A DNA stretch of 64,000 nt from Anaeromyces robustus (taxonomy: Eukaryota; Neocallimastigomycota; Neocallimastigomycetes; Neocallimastigales; Neocallimastigaceae): NCBI GenBank assembly GCA_002104895.1, contig MCFG01000063.1, forward strand, positions 138,501 through 202,500, in the 5' to 3' direction. The stretch's first letter is position 1. Every line of letters begins with the position of its first letter. Below are positions 26,930-58,880 of this stretch, in pieces. A program made the position numbers and the translations under genes. The notes under the pieces were generated by a model. The model was not told the origin of the DNA. It searched no databases and saw only the letters and a list, made by a program, of their open reading frames with translations.

Positions 26930-28010
26930 AATAGGAAATAATTAAAATAAACCAATGGTCAATTCTTTGATAACTATCACTATAGAAACAGCATGAACAA
27001 CAATTAGGACAAATGATATTAATTAATTTGTCAGCTTTAACTAACTCTAATATCAATTTTATATCCAAATCTTGCCCAAAATATTCACCTAAAAAACCTT
27101 TACTATATTCAGGAAATTCTAAGATTTAAACTTTAAGTAATTTCTTGAATTTTCAAAATTATTCATTTTATAAATTTTAGCTTTAACTTATTTATCATTG
27201 TTCATGTCCCTCTCCCAATAGAAGTTCATAATTTCTTTAGGTAGAGGATGAAATAATATTGTTTAATTTATTTAAATTCTATTCTTTATCTTTTCGACGT
27301 TGACGCCCTTGAAGCCACTCGGAGTGTTCTTATTGTTATTATACCAATTGAGAAGAATCCGAAAGAATATATTTTACAATTGGCATAACAACAGTAAAAA
27401 AATACGATAGACCCACAATATCCGGAACAGGAAACTCGGATGAACCTTTGAAAAGTTGTCCATGCCATTGACTCCGTCCCTCATCCATACCTAGTTTATC
27501 AAATGCATAACCACCCATCAAGGAAAGTGTTAAGCATCAAGTAATATATATTATTTTCATAATCTTCGTCTGAGTCCTCAGAAAATCCCAGTGATTTAGT
27601 TTGATTAATTACGGTGAACTTCAAGTATAAGTCAACATTGTGTTTAAAAAAAGTATCTCTATTCTGTTCAATGGCCTTACAATTGAATATCTAATGGGAG
27701 AAACTTTGCATTTTTTTCATCACAGTAAGGGCAGCAGCACGTAGGAAAGCTTTTTAAGAGAAGACTTATCTTTAAGTAGAAACTTATAGTTAAATTGAAA
27801 ACCGCTGGCGTATTCTCATAATCCAGAAGAACCCCAGTTGGGTATTAGGGATTAGGTATGATAAAACAAGATCCTGTATATCTTTGGAAGGTCCATATTT
27901 ACATTCCAAGTATATAGAAGCTCTTTTAGAAGAATTCTTTCTTCCCATATTATCGGTATTTTAAATTACTACTCGCCCCTTTTAGGTTCAAATAAGACTA
28001 AAACCAAAAA
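26930..28010 (-). pseudogene. Decayed protein-coding region, family not recognised
   Basis: Coding-like fragments lie in different minus-strand frames, broken by stops and shifts. In order they are: one with KNSSKRASIYLECKYGPSKD (about 27940-27800); one with a Cys cluster TCCCPYCDEKNAKFLPLDIQ (about 27745-27690); one with KAIEQNRDTFFKHNVDLYLK and GFSEDSDEDYENN (about 27680-27540); one with GGYAFDKLGMDEGRSQWHG (27521-27339); and one with ICPNCCSCCFYSDSYQRIDH (about 27110-26960). Composition is far more balanced than the neighbouring desert. The paired Cys clusters could be metal-binding, so a transposon-encoded or zinc-finger protein is possible, but I cannot name it. Boundaries are approximate. 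Confidence 0.45.
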
Positions 28011-29315: not shown

Positions 29316-30329
29316 TTAACAATAGTTATTAATGTATTTTTCTCTGGCATCACAACGATTCATCCAACCTTGTAAATATTGTCTTAAATTAGAATTGTTA
29401 GCAACAGCATCTTTAAAATCTTGACGACTAATACTATTTAATAAACGAGCATAAGTTTTACTATCTCTATTACCAATTGGATTATTAGCAACAACTTCTT
29501 TAGTTCTATATGGACCATTTAAGGAATAATCAAGACATACAAAGTAAGCAGGTTGTGGAAGATTAGTACAACCAGCAATAGAACCAAATAATTTTTCATA
29601 AAGATTAGCTGTACCTTCTTGGAATTTATCTTTATTTAAATCATATGCACATTTAACAAATAATACGGAATTATAACTACATTTATTAAGAGCATAATTA
29701 TAATAACTTCTATTCGTCCAACCAGTTTGTGGGGTAACTCCCATACAAGTATAACCAAGTTGACCTTGATACCAATTACCTGGATCACCACTCATATTTT
29801 GACATCCTCCTTCATTTTGGAATATTTGAGGTAAAGATTCATAAGCTTTAGATTTGCCTGATTTAGTAGCATTTGGATTTCTAACCGTTGGACATGAAGA
29901 AGTAACCGTACCACCACCAGTAGTACCACCAGTAGTACCACCAGTAGTACCACCTGTACTTTTATTACTATTTGGAATACAAAGTTTAACATTATTACTA
30001 CCAGGACATTCAGCGGTATTAGCTAAATAATTTTTATTTAAATTACAATTTTTAGTATTTATACAAACACCAGGGGTTTTAAGAGTTTCTCCTGTAGTAA
30101 GTTTAGTAACTGATTTAATACAACAAATAACATCATCTGGATCATTTGGACATGGCCAATTTGGATAACTACCAGCATATCTTTCATATTTAGCCGTTTG
30201 TCCAGTACTATTACAAGAATATTTTGGGACACAAACTCCTTGTTGACTTCCCTTATAACATGGTTGATCAATATAAGCAAAAACTGGGGAAGCTAAAAAA
30301 ATAGATAATAATTTGAAATTAAAACGCAT
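29316..30329 (-). CDS. Secreted GH108-like N-acetylmuramidase (lysozyme) with Cys-rich N-terminal modules, 337 aa
   Basis: It likely cleaves peptidoglycan outside the cell. A signal peptide (residues 1-18, ending PVFA) leads to two small Cys-rich modules (about 24-70 and 88-118) ending in ICCIK and KLCIP. A Gly-Thr linker of TGG repeats follows (about 124-140), then the catalytic domain (about 146-337). NEGG (Glu173) followed by GDPGNW and MGVTPQTGW matches the E-G-G...D-x-G-x-x-T-x-x-G-V-T pattern of GH108. QYLQGWMNRCDAREKYI matches the family's C-terminal 'GWxNRxxxRxxY' region. Glu173 is the expected catalytic acid. GH108 enzymes are mainly bacterial and phage proteins, so horizontal origin is likely. 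The extra Cys residues suggest adaptation to secretion. The substrate is inferred from the family. Confidence 0.75.
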   Translation of the reverse strand: MRFNFKLLSIFLASPVFAYIDQPCYKGSQQGVCVPKYSCNSTGQTAKYERYAGSYPNWPCPNDPDDVICCIKSVTKLTTGETLKTPGVCINTKNCNLNKNYLANTAECPGSNNVKLCIPNSNKSTGGTTGGTTGGTTGGGTVTSSCPTVRNPNATKSGKSKAYESLPQIFQNEGGCQNMSGDPGNWYQGQLGYTCMGVTPQTGWTNRSYYNYALNKCSYNSVLFVKCAYDLNKDKFQEGTANLYEKLFGSIAGCTNLPQPAYFVCLDYSLNGPYRTKEVVANNPIGNRDSKTYARLLNSISRQDFKDAVANNSNLRQYLQGWMNRCDAREKYINNYC

Positions 30330-40075: not shown

Positions 40076-43000
40076 TTAAACATTCCATAAATTGAAATAA
40101 AATACTTGATCATCAAGCTTATTATTACAATCATTCATAACTAAAACAGAGGCATCAGAATTTGATACTCCAATACATTTATTCTTTGATGAAGATGATA
40201 AAATAGAATTACCTTCACGATAAAATGTAGTTCCATCTTTTTCACATTCTCCTAAAATTAATGTTCCTTTAGTAGCATCTGAAAGCATAATACAATAATT
40301 GGAATTAACTTTTGAACGGAATTTTCCATTATGTGTATAAGGAATAGACCAAAGAGTATTATTAGAATAATCACAATCGTTAAAAGTAATTGGAGTACCT
40401 AATATACCTGAAGTATAAATACATTTATTCATATTTGCATTATATAAATAATATATTTCAGTATTAGGAGAAAGTGTTGGATTTGATGTAGGTTCAATAA
40501 TACCACACCATTCATCATTTTCAGCACCCCATTTACCATTTTCATCTACATAAATTACAGCTGTATTTTCAGGAGAACAACATGGATAACCTAAGGCTTC
40601 AAAATAACAATCAGTTGATATAGTTGTTGTTGTTGTTGAAGTTGGATTATGATCCCAAACAAAAAATTGTTCTTCATTATTTTTAACACATTTATTTAAA
40701 TTTAATTCAATTTCATTATTATAGAGGTCATTAGAATTTAAAATACCAATACATTTATCATTAGATAATAATGAAATAAAGTATCCATCATTATTATGTT
40801 CTAAATTAGCTTGTTCATCACATTTACCTAAACTAAGTGAACCTTCATTAATATTTTCAACACGTAAACAATAATCAGGATAAGCCATAGAATAGAAATA
40901 ACCTTTACGAGAAGATAATACCATCCATTTTGAATAATTTGAATCATCACAAGGTTTTACCATAATTTTTCCACCATTTATATTTTCTGGAGCATACAAA
41001 CACTTATTAGTAAATGCATGATAGAACCAATATACATTATAACCAGGTTTAGGAGTAACCGGTGGTTTAATAGTAGGTGTAGATGGTGTTGCTATTGTTG
41101 TTGAAATTAATGATGTAGTTGTAATAGGTGCATATTTAAATTCAGAAATACCCATATTAGGATTACTTTCAATAAATCCTTTAATAGAATTAATTATTTT
41201 TCCATTATCTAAATTTTCAATAATCCATTCAGAATAATCATTTTTACTTGTTTCAAAATTCAAAGTATTACCATTTAAACAATGATCGTTAGGATCCACA
41301 TTATTCTTAATACAAATAAATTTATTGTCAACTATTTTGAAGTGGATGTGATGATTGATTTGATCATCAGCTTTACTACATTCAATCATTCTTCCATTTT
41401 GAGAGTTCATGGCATATAAGCATTTACCAGTAGCATCTAATACAAGTTGATCATTTTGGTAGGTCCATTCACTGTGATTACAATCACCCATTAAAAGTAC
41501 ATCGGTATCTGAATGTAAATTAGTGATAAGACACTCTTGAGTTTTTTTGTTACGAATACGAAATTTAGAATTAGTTACCATTTCGCCAATACCACACCAT
41601 TCACCATCTTCAAAACCCCAAGAACCATTATTATCAGTATAAGCAACTGCAGGATTTACAGAAGAACAACATGGATAACCTAAAATACTAAATGAACATC
41701 TCTCATAACCAATGCCACATAATTTACCATTTTCTATACCCCAATTACCAATTTCATCAACATATTCAACTTGAGTGTTTTGGTTAGAACAACATGAGAA
41801 TCCGCGTTTAGCAAATCTTGTTGAACAAGTTAAATTATCATATATTTTAGATTCTAATATTTTAGGAATAAAATCATAATTACCATCTATACATTTAGAT
41901 CCATTAATTCGTGAACAAATTTGTCCATCTTTAATAGTAAAATCTTCATATTTGTTATTTTTATTACATTCATCCATAGATAATTTATCATTATCATAAT
42001 TTAAACATTTACCATCATATTTTGAAATAATGTTAAAGTATTTATCATTTTTATCAATACTCCACTGATTTAATTTATTTTTAATACATTTGTAATTAGT
42101 TTTTATTAAATCTTGTTTTCCATGCTCATCAATTACTATTTTACGTTGAAGACAGGCTTCTGGATTTTCATTATTTTCACTTCTTTTAACAGATGATGAA
42201 AATTTCGAATTAACAAAATAATATATAGTATCTATAAATCGAGTAATATTTTTTAAACTAAATGCATTTGGAATAGAAATATTATTAGTTTGATATATTT
42301 TACGTACTACATCTGGACTTGGAAAATCTAACATAATCCATTGATTATAAATTGTTCCGTCATATTTAACTAATCTCTCATTCATATATGAAGCTGATTT
42401 TTCTATACTCGAGTCAAAAAGTGTATCCATTATAAGAGAAAAATACCCTTTTTCTCTACTTGCTCTTCCTATATTCATAAAATTTAAAGTAAGTACATTT
42501 TTATGGTTTGTATCATTAAATCTGTTAGTTTCTGAATCAGGTAAAATTATATAATTTGCAGTATCATTTCTAGATTTAACATTATTTGTTAATACATCAT
42601 ATACCATGTCCCATTTATCATCTTTTTCTAAATTATAATCGTCTTGAACACGAAATACACTATTACCATATATTACTGGTAAACATTTATCACCATCAGT
42701 GTCACGAGAACTATCAGAAGTTGTAGATCTATATTCATAACAATCTCCCATTTCTGGTATATATATTGTTTTACCTATTTTTCCTACATTATTATTTTCA
42801 GTAAAATTATAATATAAATTATAACGTGTTAAAAGAACTATTTTGCCTTGTGCATCTTTAAGTCTTGGCATTGTATCATTACTATAAAAAAAATCTTTAA
42901 ATAAAATTTCATTATTTTTTTCATCTTTAATAACAGTTGAATTTAGAATTGTATTTAATGCAAGTATATTTTCAAATTTTTTTGGTACACTAGTTATTTT

Positions 43001-43435
43001 ATTTGGAAGTTTTTCACTTTTAACTTGAACAATGATTGCTTCTAATGGATGATGGATTAAAAAGTTAATACAATCTTCTAATACTTCACTTAAATAAAGA
43101 ATATCTGAATCATCATAACATGTCATTCCATTATGAGTAATATGTATCAAATTAGCGGCATCATCTTCATCTATTGTGAGTCGTAAATCGAAATATCTAA
43201 TACCATATTCTAATTGTTCTTTAATAGTTAATGATTGAGCTTCCGACCAAGGTGCATTAGTCCATTTTGTATCGTAAGCTCCACTATCATGAGTACCTGG
43301 AATATTAATTTGGTTAAGTCTTAAGGTATCATCAGAAATAAAACTCATCCAATTAGCATCAATATCCAATGCATTAATATTATTAAATAATAATATGTAG
43401 CAATAAATAAAAATATAATGAATAATATTTTTCAT
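40076..43435 (-). CDS. Secreted PI-PLC-like phosphodiesterase with three dockerins and beta-trefoil lectin blocks, 1119 aa
   Basis: A signal peptide (1-22) is followed by a phosphatidylinositol-specific phospholipase C X-type domain (about 25-400) of the bacterial kind. GTHDSGAYDT carries the first catalytic His (His49), IRYFDLRL carries Arg80 and Arg85, and HITHNG carries the second His (His101). The rest is a mosaic: beta-trefoil (ricin-B-type) carbohydrate-binding repeats at about 425-535, 625-740, 800-930 and 990-1119; dockerins at 537-575, 580-616 and 943-980, each CC-rich and ending WCGI or LCGI; and a Thr/Pro linker at 771-797. The dockerins imply docking to the cellulosome. The trefoils probably bind polysaccharide or glycoconjugates. 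The enzyme may cleave PI or GPI-type lipids; the substrate is not shown. The X-domain's bacterial character suggests horizontal acquisition followed by addition of fungal modules. Confidence 0.88.
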   Translation of the reverse strand: MKNIIHYIFIYCYILLFNNINALDIDANWMSFISDDTLRLNQINIPGTHDSGAYDTKWTNAPWSEAQSLTIKEQLEYGIRYFDLRLTIDEDDAANLIHITHNGMTCYDDSDILYLSEVLEDCINFLIHHPLEAIIVQVKSEKLPNKITSVPKKFENILALNTILNSTVIKDEKNNEILFKDFFYSNDTMPRLKDAQGKIVLLTRYNLYYNFTENNNVGKIGKTIYIPEMGDCYEYRSTTSDSSRDTDGDKCLPVIYGNSVFRVQDDYNLEKDDKWDMVYDVLTNNVKSRNDTANYIILPDSETNRFNDTNHKNVLTLNFMNIGRASREKGYFSLIMDTLFDSSIEKSASYMNERLVKYDGTIYNQWIMLDFPSPDVVRKIYQTNNISIPNAFSLKNITRFIDTIYYFVNSKFSSSVKRSENNENPEACLQRKIVIDEHGKQDLIKTNYKCIKNKLNQWSIDKNDKYFNIISKYDGKCLNYDNDKLSMDECNKNNKYEDFTIKDGQICSRINGSKCIDGNYDFIPKILESKIYDNLTCSTRFAKRGFSCCSNQNTQVEYVDEIGNWGIENGKLCGIGYERCSFSILGYPCCSSVNPAVAYTDNNGSWGFEDGEWCGIGEMVTNSKFRIRNKKTQECLITNLHSDTDVLLMGDCNHSEWTYQNDQLVLDATGKCLYAMNSQNGRMIECSKADDQINHHIHFKIVDNKFICIKNNVDPNDHCLNGNTLNFETSKNDYSEWIIENLDNGKIINSIKGFIESNPNMGISEFKYAPITTTSLISTTIATPSTPTIKPPVTPKPGYNVYWFYHAFTNKCLYAPENINGGKIMVKPCDDSNYSKWMVLSSRKGYFYSMAYPDYCLRVENINEGSLSLGKCDEQANLEHNNDGYFISLLSNDKCIGILNSNDLYNNEIELNLNKCVKNNEEQFFVWDHNPTSTTTTTISTDCYFEALGYPCCSPENTAVIYVDENGKWGAENDEWCGIIEPTSNPTLSPNTEIYYLYNANMNKCIYTSGILGTPITFNDCDYSNNTLWSIPYTHNGKFRSKVNSNYCIMLSDATKGTLILGECEKDGTTFYREGNSILSSSSKNKCIGVSNSDASVLVMNDCNNKLDDQVFYFNLWNV

Positions 43436-44277: not shown

Positions 44278-44685
44278 TTTTTTTAATAGACTTATTATGT
44301 ATTATCACATGAATGTATTTGAATTATATTCCATGCCTTACTTTTTCAGCCCTTAGTATGTTCACATGTTTTACATTTGTACTTAAACCCTAACTTAATA
44401 ACGGGTCCAATCTACAAACCTCACATACTAACAGTGATTACCAAGGAAATAGATAAATAATAGAAATTCGCACCCCATATTATTAGGATTTAGTTCAATT
44501 AATATTATTTTATGATATCTGAGTAGCTACTCCTTAAATACTTAAACCTGAAGCAACCAACTTACCAGAGTGTAAAAATCTATTACGTTGAAAAACCACT
44601 GTGCTTAGGGTAGATGCAATATTGAACCATAAGTCTTATGTATGCTAAAGATATGACTTTACAACCAGAATAGAAACTGGTCAAC
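44278..44685 (-). mobile_element. tRNA-derived SINE, older diverged copy
   Basis: About 408 bp, alignable along its whole length with 46190-46590, sharing for example CAACCAGRATAGAAACTGGT, ACTTAAACCCTAAC, TAATAACGGGTCCA and CACATGAATGTAT. The minus strand is the sense strand: the 5' end is GTTGACCAGTTTCTA and the 3' end is a short A-tail (44278-44284 as T). It is flanked by imperfect 13-bp duplications, AACTTAATTTATA (44265-44277) and AACTTGATATATA (44686-44698), with two differences, as expected of an old insertion. Its box-B-like GGTTCAATATT keeps the GGTTC core. Confidence 0.75.
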
Positions 44686-46175: not shown

Positions 46176-46189
46176 TGTTGACCTATAAA

Positions 46190-46590
46190 TTTTTTTTTTT
46201 TTTTTTTTTTTATAGACTTATCATGTGATTTTTCACATGAATGTATCGGAATTAAATTCCCTGCCTTACCTTTTCGGCGTCGACGCCCTTGGTATATTCA
46301 TATATTTTACATTTGTACTTAAACCCTAACGCTAACTTAATAACGGGTCCAGTCTACAAGCCCCACATATGAATAGTAGTCACCAAGGAAACCGCCCAAT
46401 AATTTAGAGCCGCACCCCACATTATTAGACTTAAAGATCTACTCAAATACTATACCTGTGCACTACCTTGCCACAGTGTAAAACCCGTGAAGGAGAAAAC
46501 CACTTGTGCTTGGGGTAGATGCGGTGTCGATCCAGAAGCCTTATGTATGCTAAGGAAACGCCTTAACAACCAGGATAGAAACTGGTCGAC
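46190..46590 (-). mobile_element. tRNA-derived SINE, young copy with poly(A) tail and perfect target-site duplication
   Basis: A GC-richer 401-bp element lies on the minus strand, starting at 46590 (GTCGACCAGTTTCTATCCTG) and ending in a 22-nt A tail (46211-46190). The 5' part looks like a tRNA: D-arm-like TGGTTGTTAAGGCG (46572-46559), an anticodon-arm-like CCTTA-GCATACA-TAAGG hairpin (46555-46539), and box-B-like GGATCGACACC (46533-46523; 10 of 11 against GGTTCGANNCC). The body is unrelated to tRNA. Perfect 14-bp duplications TGTTGACCTATAAA flank it at 46176-46189 and 46591-46604. This is the signature of LINE-dependent retroposition. A 21-bp-scale similarity to 27289-27312 may point to a partner element. 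Confidence 0.85.
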
Positions 46591-46604
46591 TGTTGACCTA
46601 TAAA

Positions 46605-50416: not shown

Positions 50417-51268
50417 TTATATATTATTAATTATTAATCTATATATAATAATAAATATTATAAATAAAATAAATAATAAGAAAAATATTTTAACATATAT
50501 TCTACTTTTTGGAAACACGCAATAACAAATACAGCAACTAATTGGTATTATTATAAATATTAATATTAATATTATGTAAATAATTGTAATATCTTTAGCA
50601 GTAACAACTTGAACATCATTATCAGTGTTATTATTAACATTGTCATCATCCCTTTTAGAAAGAATAATATCATTCATAGTGCATAAACCATGAATACTAC
50701 ATTTTATTGAAGAACATTCTTCATTAGATTTACATGTGTCATTATATGGTTTACCACAATTCATAAATGATGTTTTATCATTTTCATAAATATTATCACA
50801 ATGAACTATTGGATTTTTATCATTAAAAACACAATAATTATTAAAACATTTATTAGATAAACATTCAGAATTATTAATACATTTTACAGATAAGCATACA
50901 TTATCAATACACTTAAATGTAGGGCAACTATTTAATTTGGCATTATCATATGTACAAGTATAAGTATTGTATAATAATAAAGTTTCATTTTCATCTGGAA
51001 ATTCAATAAATGGTTTAGTATATTCATTATCTACGAATGCACAAGTATTATTTTTGCAATAATAACTAGTATGAAATACATTAGTTTGATTTAATACATT
51101 TTCTTTATTTAATATTTTTTCTTTATCATAAATATAAATAAAGTCGTTATTTTTACTATAATTAGTGATATTATTGTATGTATAAACTATTACATCATTT
51201 ATAGTGTGAGTGTAAATAAATTGAATATTAATAATATAAATAAAATATAAAATAAATAATTTATACAT
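50417..51268 (-). CDS. Secreted/membrane Cys-rich protein, copy 1 (283 aa)
   Basis: A signal peptide (residues 1-20) precedes an extracellular Cys-rich region of about 200 residues with spaced motifs such as CIDNVCLSVKCINNSECLSN and KCFNNYCVF, and the later CGKPYNDTCKSNEECSSIKC. The pattern C-x-S-N-x-E-C-x-S-x-x-C recurs and looks like small disulfide-bonded knots. A dibasic site (SKRDDD) and an Asn/Asp stretch follow. Two hydrophobic segments (about 224-250 and 258-280) flank a CCICYCVF patch. The function is not recognised; a surface-anchored protein is likely. It is nearly identical to the gene at 58029-58880; the five residue differences all lie in the last 65 residues. Confidence 0.8.
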   Translation of the reverse strand: MYKLFILYFIYIINIQFIYTHTINDVIVYTYNNITNYSKNNDFIYIYDKEKILNKENVLNQTNVFHTSYYCKNNTCAFVDNEYTKPFIEFPDENETLLLYNTYTCTYDNAKLNSCPTFKCIDNVCLSVKCINNSECLSNKCFNNYCVFNDKNPIVHCDNIYENDKTSFMNCGKPYNDTCKSNEECSSIKCSIHGLCTMNDIILSKRDDDNVNNNTDNDVQVVTAKDITIIYIILILIFIIIPISCCICYCVFPKSRIYVKIFFLLFILFIIFIIIYRLIINNI

Positions 51269-58028: not shown

Positions 58029-58880
58029 TTATACATTATTAATTATTATTCTATATATAATAATAAATATTACAAATAAAATAAATAATAAGAAAAATAT
58101 TTTAACATATATTCTACTTTTTGGAAACACGCAATAACAAATACAGCAACTAATTGGTATTATTATAAATATAAATATTAATATTATGTAAATAATTGTA
58201 ATATCTTTAGCAGTAACACCTTGAACATCATTATCAGTGTTATTATTAACATTGTCATCATCCCTTTTAGAAAGAATAATATCATTCATAGTGCATAAAC
58301 CATGAATACTACATTTTATTGAAGAACATTCTTCATTAGATTTACATGTGTCATTATATGGTTTACCACAATTCATAAATGATGTTTTATCATTTTCATA
58401 AATATTATCACAATGAACTATTGGATTTTTATCATTAAAAACACAATAATTATTAAAACATTTATTAGATAAACATTCAGAATTATTAATACATTTTACA
58501 GATAAGCATACATTATCAATACACTTAAATGTAGGGCAACTATTTAATTTGGCATTATCATATGTACAAGTATAAGTATTGTATAATAATAAAGTTTCAT
58601 TTTCATCTGGAAATTCAATAAATGGTTTAGTATATTCATTATCTACGAATGCACAAGTATTATTTTTGCAATAATAACTAGTATGAAATACATTAGTTTG
58701 ATTTAATACATTTTCTTTATTTAATATTTTTTCTTTATCATAAATATAAATAAAGTCGTTATTTTTACTATAATTAGTGATATTATTGTATGTATAAACT
58801 ATTACATCATTTATAGTGTGAGTGTAAATAAATTGAATATTAATAATATAAATAAAATATAAAATAAATAATTTATACAT
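58029..58880 (-). CDS. Secreted/membrane Cys-rich protein, copy 2 (283 aa)
   Basis: It has the same layout as the gene at 50417-51268: signal peptide, Cys-knot-like motifs, a dibasic/Asn-Asp linker and two hydrophobic C-terminal segments. Compared by eye, 58220-58882 and 50608-51270 show no base difference, synonymous sites included. Differences appear only in the last 190 or so coding bases (Val to Gly, Leu to Phe, Ile to Val, Leu to Ile, Ile to Val) and in the flanks. The function is not recognised. Confidence 0.8.
   Translation of the reverse strand: MYKLFILYFIYIINIQFIYTHTINDVIVYTYNNITNYSKNNDFIYIYDKEKILNKENVLNQTNVFHTSYYCKNNTCAFVDNEYTKPFIEFPDENETLLLYNTYTCTYDNAKLNSCPTFKCIDNVCLSVKCINNSECLSNKCFNNYCVFNDKNPIVHCDNIYENDKTSFMNCGKPYNDTCKSNEECSSIKCSIHGLCTMNDIILSKRDDDNVNNNTDNDVQGVTAKDITIIYIILIFIFIIIPISCCICYCVFPKSRIYVKIFFLLFILFVIFIIIYRIIINNV

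What the first reader, a model, noticed from the sequence alone, without database searches (positions are those of the whole stretch)
46176..46604. Young tRNA-derived SINE with 14-bp target-site duplication in an anaerobic fungus
A GC-richer 401-bp element ends in 22 A's (minus strand) and is bounded by perfect TGTTGACCTATAAA repeats. Its 5' end has a D-arm-like, an anticodon-arm-like and a box-B-like segment in tRNA order and spacing. This indicates polymerase III transcription and LINE-driven retroposition. I know of no well-described SINE family in this phylum.
Basis: partly seen in the sequence, partly recalled or inferred. Interest (0 to 1): 0.75.

Follow-up and report, generated by a model that had tools for sequence, protein, structure and literature searches.

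The report
Young SINE retrotransposon in anaerobic fungus
This is one of dozens of nearly identical short jumping-gene copies (a tRNA-headed SINE) in an anaerobic gut fungus, which appears to be copied by an L1-like element whose 3' end it shares; it is a new family of a known kind.

Summary
The 401-bp element (46190-46590, minus strand; A22 tail; perfect 14-bp target-site duplication, TSD) belongs to a dispersed family in its own 70.2-Mb genome. There are 66 places with the head motif and 140 with the tail motif; reversed controls gave 0.

Of 30 fetched copies, 26 have exact TSDs of 9-20 nt at or within 3 nt of the 5' end. Two share flanks, so 25 of 29 separate sites. Swapped flanks: 4.4% of 870 pairs. 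Mean divergence of 27 copies is 0.5%. The head aligns ungapped to the genome's tRNA-Ala(AGC) over 46 nt (0 of 1000 shuffles), nearly as well to tRNA-Val. Box B is intact, box A degenerate.

New here: the 3' part shares 45-49 nt at 88-92% identity with the coding end of a LINE in the same genome, whose best solved relative is human L1 ORF2p. The window copy has a 42-nt deletion found at no other place. An older copy (75.6%) lies 1.5 kb away.

Transcription, the LINE's clade and trans-mobilisation are untested.

The parts
46190..46590 (-). SINE copy (401 bp including A tail); 5' end at 46590
46591..46604 (.). target-site duplication, 5' side of the element
   Evidence: perfect 14-nt match
46176..46189 (.). 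target-site duplication, 3' side of the element
   Evidence: perfect 14-nt match
46190..46211 (-). A22 tail
   Evidence: A runs of 8 to 62 or 66 in other copies
46523..46590 (-). tRNA-related head (element nt 1-68); nt n corresponds to tRNA position n-6 (counted by hand), so the 5' end lies about 6 nt upstream of the mature tRNA start
   Evidence: ungapped alignment with own tRNA-Ala(AGC) (L093) and tRNA-Val(TAC)
46566..46577 (-). degenerate box-A-like segment (nt 14-25)
   Evidence: position by tRNA numbering; consensus recalled
46539..46555 (-). anticodon-arm-like 5-bp stem and 7-nt loop (CCTTA GCATACA TAAGG)
   Evidence: sequence; CTTAGCAT identical in own tRNA-Ala(AGC)
46523..46533 (-). 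box B GGATCGACACC (own tRNA-Ala: GGATCGACGCC)
46441..46445 (-). junction of a 42-nt deletion (GAG microhomology; the lost segment holds a 7-bp hairpin, seen by eye)
   Evidence: alignment; exact junction at 1 of 61 places
46243..46291 (-). 49-nt segment shared with the 3' end of the coding sequence of an L1-like LINE
   Evidence: 87.8-91.8% identity over 45-49 nt in 8 LINE loci
46212..46242 (-). rest of the 3' tail with hairpin CATGTGAAAAATCACATG and end AAGTCTATA(n); weakly alignable to the LINE 3' UTR, whose end is CCTAGTCTA(n)
   Evidence: 6 of 2000 shuffles reach the score; folds
44282..44682 (-). older copy of the same SINE, 75.6% identical, full length
27272..27311 (-). decayed 3' remnant of the partner-type LINE, with the shared segment
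   Evidence: 82.5% over 40 nt

Best explanation
A recently amplified tRNA-derived SINE. Shown: the unit is dispersed, non-coding and about 420 nt plus an A tail. It has a nearly fixed 5' end, its own TSD at most sites, a tRNA-Ala/Val-like head, a middle of unknown origin, and a 3' part sharing sequence with a LINE of the same genome. Inferred: RNA polymerase III starts at nt 1, driven by the internal promoter (strong box B, weak box A), and reads through the element. The RNA's LINE-like 3' end and A tail are then taken by the reverse transcriptase of the L1-like LINE (or a close relative), which nicks a T-rich site, primes on the A tail and copies the RNA. Complete copying leaves a full element between TSDs; early stops leave 5'-truncated copies. 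The window copy is one such insertion that also lost 42 nt.
For: Copies: 40 scored of 340 first-look candidates; 66 head-motif places, 60 of them exact; 140 tail-motif places at up to 3 mismatches; reversed controls 0. TSDs: 26 of 30 loci at 9 nt or more, that is 25 of 29 separate sites since L015 and L020 share flanks; in a second set 25 of 30, against 4.4% of 870 swapped pairs. Target site: T at -2 in 23 of 26 (background 0.44) and A at +4 in 21 of 26 (0.42), best of 20 positions apart from -1. Youth: mean pairwise divergence 0.0052 over 27 copies, 17 of 351 pairs without substitutions. 5' truncation: 39 of the 100 listed tails have no head-motif hit upstream, and both of the two fetched begin inside the element. 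tRNA head: score 36 with tRNA-Ala(AGC), 34 with tRNA-Val(TAC), 0 of 1000 shuffles each; of the other five tRNAs, Ala(CGC) is reached by 14 of 1000, Cys by 135, Thr, Arg and Glu by 581 or more. Terminator: of 28 own tRNA genes with a T run of 4 or more within 40 nt, 26 have 5 or more, so T4 need not stop Pol III here. LINE: 8 of 8 fetched loci of the 771-nt RT class share the segment; 44 places carry the LINE version; the LINE has RVT_1 and a borderline APE-type endonuclease and A tails.
Against: No RNA evidence. Box A matches its consensus poorly. ARAGORN and Rfam at E up to 10 find no tRNA in the element, and its head folds as a long hairpin rather than a cloverleaf. Two TTTT runs lie inside it. 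The older copy's head no longer scores as a tRNA (14 for Ala and Val). Beyond the 49-nt block the LINE similarity is weak, and the block is coding in the LINE. The LINE segment's fold is matched by 141 of 200 shuffles and the old copy's tail by 69 of 200. Another LINE class (762-768-nt RT) was not read, so the true partner may be a relative. 4 of 30 loci lack a TSD of 9 nt (one at a contig end), and neither of the two fetched 5'-truncated copies shows one. L015 and L020 lie in duplicated DNA, so some copies spread by duplication or are counted twice. The assembly holds no empty site for the window copy.
Confidence: 0.88

Rival explanations
1. A SINE (as above) moved by relaxed, poly(A)-only recognition: the LINE machinery only needs the A tail, and the shared 49 nt is a relic of how the SINE was assembled, not a recognition signal. 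This rival concerns the recognition step only and does not exclude the best explanation.
For: Both LINE and SINE end in A runs. Mammalian L1 works so (PMC3747384, passages). The older copy has a damaged first hairpin yet was inserted, though the damage may be later. The LINE segment and the old tail do not fold better than shuffles.
Against: The segment is kept near the 3' end of both the old and the young copies, where paired SINE and LINE tails usually sit. The young SINE tail folds better than 199 of 200 shuffles.
Confidence: 0.4
2. A Pol II-derived or other small-RNA-derived retrocopy family whose tRNA likeness is decayed and without function.
For: Degenerate box A, no cloverleaf, no Rfam match, two internal TTTT.
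Against: Box B intact, and a 46-nt ungapped match in tRNA register. The 5' end lies about 6 nt upstream of the tRNA start, as a Pol III start would (recalled). No AATAAA before the A tail in the reference copy (sequence).
Confidence: 0.1
3. Not retroposition: a repeat spread by segmental duplication, or a non-autonomous DNA transposon.
For: Near-identical copies. L015 and L020 share 1,505 nt of flank at 99.9%, and four further locus pairs share stretches of 250 nt or more away from the element.
Against: In 32 loci only the L015/L020 pair shares flanks up to the element. TSD length varies from 9 to 20, A tails vary and 5' truncations occur. No terminal inverted repeats are seen by eye.
Confidence: 0.02

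Closest known systems
tRNA-derived SINEs of other fungi: AfuSINE2 of Aspergillus fumigatus (PMC5063351), Mg-SINE of Magnaporthe and SINE2-1_BG of Blumeria (listed in PMC3747384), Foxy of Fusarium (named in PMC5063351)
   Same: tRNA-related head, and for some a 3' end shared with a LINE: AfuSINE2-1a with I-1_AF and I-4_AO (Tad1), Mg-SINE with MgL/MGR583, SINE2-1_BG with Tad1-24_BG; for AfuSINE2 also TSDs and a tRNA-unrelated region
   Different: A tail (AfuSINE2-1a ends in ACT repeats); 66 places with a near-identical head here against low copy number for AfuSINE2; the partner shows no RNase H match and its best solved relative is L1. No sequence comparison with those families was run, so difference in tRNA and body is assumed.
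L1-clade SINE/LINE pairs with shared 3' ends: maize ZmSINE2 and ZmSINE3 with LINE1-1_ZM, Chlamydomonas SINEX-3_CR with L1-1_CR (PMC3747384, passages)
   Same: About 50-80 nt of shared 3' sequence; the Chlamydomonas pair ends in poly(A) on both sides
   Different: Fungal host; the shared block lies in the last codons of the LINE frame; whether this LINE is in the L1 clade is not settled
Mammalian Alu and B1 with L1
   Same: A tail, TSD, L1-like reverse transcriptase
   Different: 7SL-derived, and no sequence shared with L1 beyond the A tail (PMC7245038 and PMC3747384, passages)

Membership tests
tRNA-derived SINE (SINE2) | short, non-coding, dispersed multi-copy unit | tested here: met
   66 head and 140 tail places; longest open stretch 51 codons in the reference copy
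tRNA-derived SINE (SINE2) | tRNA-related 5' head | tested here: met
   0 of 1000 shuffles reach the score with own tRNA-Ala(AGC) or tRNA-Val(TAC); which of the two is the source is not settled; seven tRNA types compared
tRNA-derived SINE (SINE2) | internal Pol III promoter, boxes A and B | tested here: inconclusive
   box B intact, box A degenerate (consensus recalled)
tRNA-derived SINE (SINE2) | Pol III transcription | not testable with these tools
   no RNA data; T4 runs inside are compatible with the mostly T5+ terminators of own tRNA genes
tRNA-derived SINE (SINE2) | variable-length target-site duplications | tested here: met
   26 of 30 loci, 9-20 nt, 25 of 29 separate sites; control 4.4% of 870
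tRNA-derived SINE (SINE2) | A-rich or repeat tail | tested here: met
   8 to 62 or 66 A
tRNA-derived SINE (SINE2) | LINE-derived 3' end or evident LINE partner | tested here: met
   45-49 nt at 87.8-91.8% in 8 LINE loci; the rest of the tail is weak
tRNA-derived SINE (SINE2) | mobilised in trans by a LINE | not testable with these tools
   needs a cell assay
Partner LINE as L1 clade | APE endonuclease and reverse transcriptase in one frame | tested here: met
   L088: PF00078 133.4 bits; PF14529 borderline, 27.0 (cut-off 27.4) for the whole and 28.8 on the N-terminal part; the locus starts inside the frame
Partner LINE as L1 clade | reverse transcriptase groups with L1 rather than Tad1, CR1, R1 and others | tested here: inconclusive
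   best solved match human L1 ORF2p 107.8 bits, R2 76.9; no other clades available for comparison; no RNase H match

The most novel reading that the evidence does not exclude
A SINE/LINE pair from anaerobic fungi in which an L1-type LINE recognises a specific structured 3' end (partly coding) plus poly(A). This would put sequence-specific ('stringent') L1 recognition in the fungal lineage and support it as the ancestral state, with the relaxed recognition of mammals derived.
Probability: 0.25. Interest if true: 0.65.

Novelty: new member of a known kind. Interest (0 to 1): 0.45.

Why it matters
In the paper listings searched, no SINE is described for the anaerobic gut fungi (Neocallimastigomycota). 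A family this young, with a likely partner LINE in the same genome, gives a natural insertion marker for strain typing and a test case for how L1-like enzymes choose their RNA. The review PMC3747384 (passages) argues that L1-clade LINEs of the green-plant ancestor were sequence-specific, from a few pairs in plants and an alga; a fungal pair would test how far back that goes.

Tried and rejected
Rfam on 1 kb round the element gave no match. The one hit of a 20-mer in bacterial and archaeal genomes (L094, a planctomycete) is a chance 21-nt match in 67% GC DNA. Two viral-contig scans found nothing. An empty site for the window copy was sought and not found; the other matches were 67-83% AT-rich likeness. 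A sister copy with the same 42-nt deletion was suspected on C346 (100% identity over 262 nt), but one search shows undeleted-type letters there, and C346 is absent from the head list, so it looks 5'-truncated. The deleted segment as a spliced intron was rejected by eye: no GT-AG in any register at the junction. The -1 T preference at the target site was not counted, because A is excluded there by construction. PMC8406330, which holds 'sine' in a listing, matched only an author name.

Full report
Observation. The element was read on both strands. It occupies 46190-46590 on the minus strand, ends in A22 and is framed by perfect 14-nt repeats at 46176-46189 and 46591-46604. The family's 424-nt reference copy is 41% GC, against about 14% in the flanks of the copies. 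ARAGORN found only a tRNA-Val elsewhere in the window, and Rfam found nothing in the 1 kb round it. The host genome is 70.2 Mb in 769 contigs; the window encodes CotH and PI-PLC/lectin proteins with CBM_10 domains, which I recall as the dockerins of anaerobic fungi. No species name was available.

Copies. A DNA search of the own genome gave 340 first-look candidates and scored 40, with 41 rows at 87-100% identity. The head 26-mer occurs at 66 places within 2 mismatches, 60 exact; the tail 26-mer at 140 places within 3 mismatches; reversed controls gave 0. Only 100 of the 140 tails were listed. Of these 100, 61 have a head hit upstream on the same strand and 39 do not; one of the 39, on C701, does have a head that the pattern missed because of a 1-nt gap. 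Two headless copies were fetched: L091 begins at reference nt 169 and L092 at 357, and neither shows a TSD of 9 nt or more. Of the 66 heads, 5 lack a listed tail.

Retroposition marks. Thirty loci were examined. In 26 of 30 an exact TSD of 9-20 nt lies at the 5' end (at offset 0 in 21 of the 26, within 3 nt in the other 5) and at the end of the A run. The other four are L011 (contig end), L019, L021 and L027. A flank comparison made as a check shows that L015 and L020 lie in duplicated DNA (99.9% over 1,505 nt on one side, 98.4% over 306 nt on the other), so they are one insertion seen twice: 25 of 29 separate sites have a TSD. Four other locus pairs (L003/L026, L027/L029, L008/L027 and L008/L029) share stretches of 250-792 nt that do not reach the element, and L002/L003 share 53 nt. 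An earlier count that included L091 and L092 and left out L011 and L026 gave 25 of 30 at 9 nt or more, against 4.4% of 870 swapped flank pairs. A runs range from 8 to 62 or 66, though the longest may include flanking A. At the target, T stands at -2 in 23 of 26 and A at +4 in 21 of 26, against about 0.44 and 0.42 in the flanks; these are the strongest of 20 positions apart from -1, where A is excluded by construction. This fits a T-rich nick as made by APE-type LINE endonucleases (recalled).

Age. Twenty-seven copies (leaving out the window copy, L011 and L027) have mean pairwise substitution divergence 0.0052, maximum 0.0192, and 17 of 351 pairs show no substitution. A second copy in the same window, 44282-44682, is 75.6% identical to the young reference, and one on C47 is 79% identical to that old copy (40 of 177 candidates scored). 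The family therefore has older remnants and a recent burst.

The window copy. It lacks 42 nt present in the other fetched full copies; the old copy has a related segment there (by eye). Its junction sequence is exact at 1 of 61 places; the other 60 have one mismatch, and of these the 40 whose letters were shown have the undeleted form. The ends of the lost piece share GAG, and the piece contains a 7-bp hairpin, so reverse-transcriptase skipping or a later small deletion are both possible.

Head. The genome has one place matching the tRNA-Ala(AGC) pattern exactly, read in L093. The SINE head aligns to it without gaps over 46 nt (score 36) and to the window's tRNA-Val(TAC) over 49 nt (score 34); 0 of 1000 shuffles reach either. 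The other five tRNAs scored 12-21, reached by 14 (Ala-CGC), 135 (Cys) and 581-924 of 1000 shuffles. Element nt n falls on tRNA position n-6. Box B is GGATCGACACC, one letter from the tRNA-Ala version. Box A (nt 14-25) is degenerate. Two TTTT runs lie inside the reference. In 35 distinct tRNA contexts, many of them copies of one tRNA-Arg, 28 had a T run of 4 or more within 40 nt; 26 of those were 5 or longer, so 7% were exactly 4, against 36% in shuffles. T4 may therefore be read through here.

3' end and partner. The RVT_1 search gave 150 scored matches of 463 candidates, mostly in two length classes, about 480 and 762-771 nt. All eight fetched loci of the 771-nt class (L080, L082, L085-L090) share 45-49 nt with SINE nt 342-390 at 87.8-91.8% identity; none of the other 22 fetched RT loci does. 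In the LINE this block lies in the last codons of the frame, and the LINE ends CCTAGTCTA(A)n where the SINE ends AAGTCTATA(A)n. The remaining SINE tail aligns to the LINE 3' UTR only weakly, with 6 of 2000 shuffles reaching the score. The LINE version of the block occurs at 44 places within 2 mismatches, and a decayed one lies in the window at 27272-27311. The LINE has a reverse transcriptase and a borderline APE endonuclease. Its best solved relative is human L1 ORF2p, 107.8 bits, ahead of R2 at 76.9, but its endonuclease part alone finds no LINE endonuclease of known structure, and no other LINE clades were available for comparison. The young SINE tail folds better than 199 of 200 shuffles; the old copy's tail is matched by 69 of 200, the LINE block by 141 and the LINE 3' UTR end by 33.

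Literature. Whole-word SINE with Neocallimastigomycota gave three unrelated papers by title. Related searches listed no SINE from these fungi; one search listed only 25 of 4,028 papers, 12 of 121 and 12 of 181. Read: passages of PMC6416283 (no Neocallimastig- term), PMC8778642, PMC6414434, PMC12341934, PMC3747384, PMC7245038 and PMC8406330, and abstract plus passages of PMC5063351. Subscription papers and Repbase were not searched, so 'first' is not claimed.

Verdict. A genuine, young, tRNA-derived SINE family with a likely partner LINE: a new member of a known kind. The step from shared sequence to mobilisation, and from box B to Pol III transcription, is inference.

Noticed in passing
window 44282-44682 (-): Older full-length copy of the same SINE, 75.6% identical to the young reference, 1.5 kb from the reported copy.
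   Followed up: yes
window 27272-27311 (-): Decayed 3' remnant of the partner-type LINE.
   Followed up: partly
window 50417-51268 and 58029-58880 (-): Two near-identical 283-aa frames about 7.6 kb apart (by eye), suggesting a recent duplication.
   Followed up: no
window 29316-30329 (-): Weak match to glycosyl hydrolase 108 (E 3.6e-5), recalled as a bacterial or phage lysozyme family; possible horizontal gain.
   Followed up: no
window 40076-43435 (-): PI-PLC-X domain with ricin-type lectins and three CBM_10 domains in one frame, an odd cellulosome-type protein.
   Followed up: no
L031-L055: Many near-identical tRNA-Arg(TCT) genes, clustered on C151, C219 and C378, several loci with a tRNA-Glu just upstream.
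   Followed up: no
G000:C136:19520 and 21124 (+): SINE head and tail motifs on the same strand 1.6 kb apart, perhaps a copy split by another insertion.
   Followed up: no
L015 and L020: Two loci with the same SINE insertion and 99.9% identical flank over 1,505 nt on contigs C457 and C279: an allele, a contig overlap or a recent duplication.
   Followed up: partly
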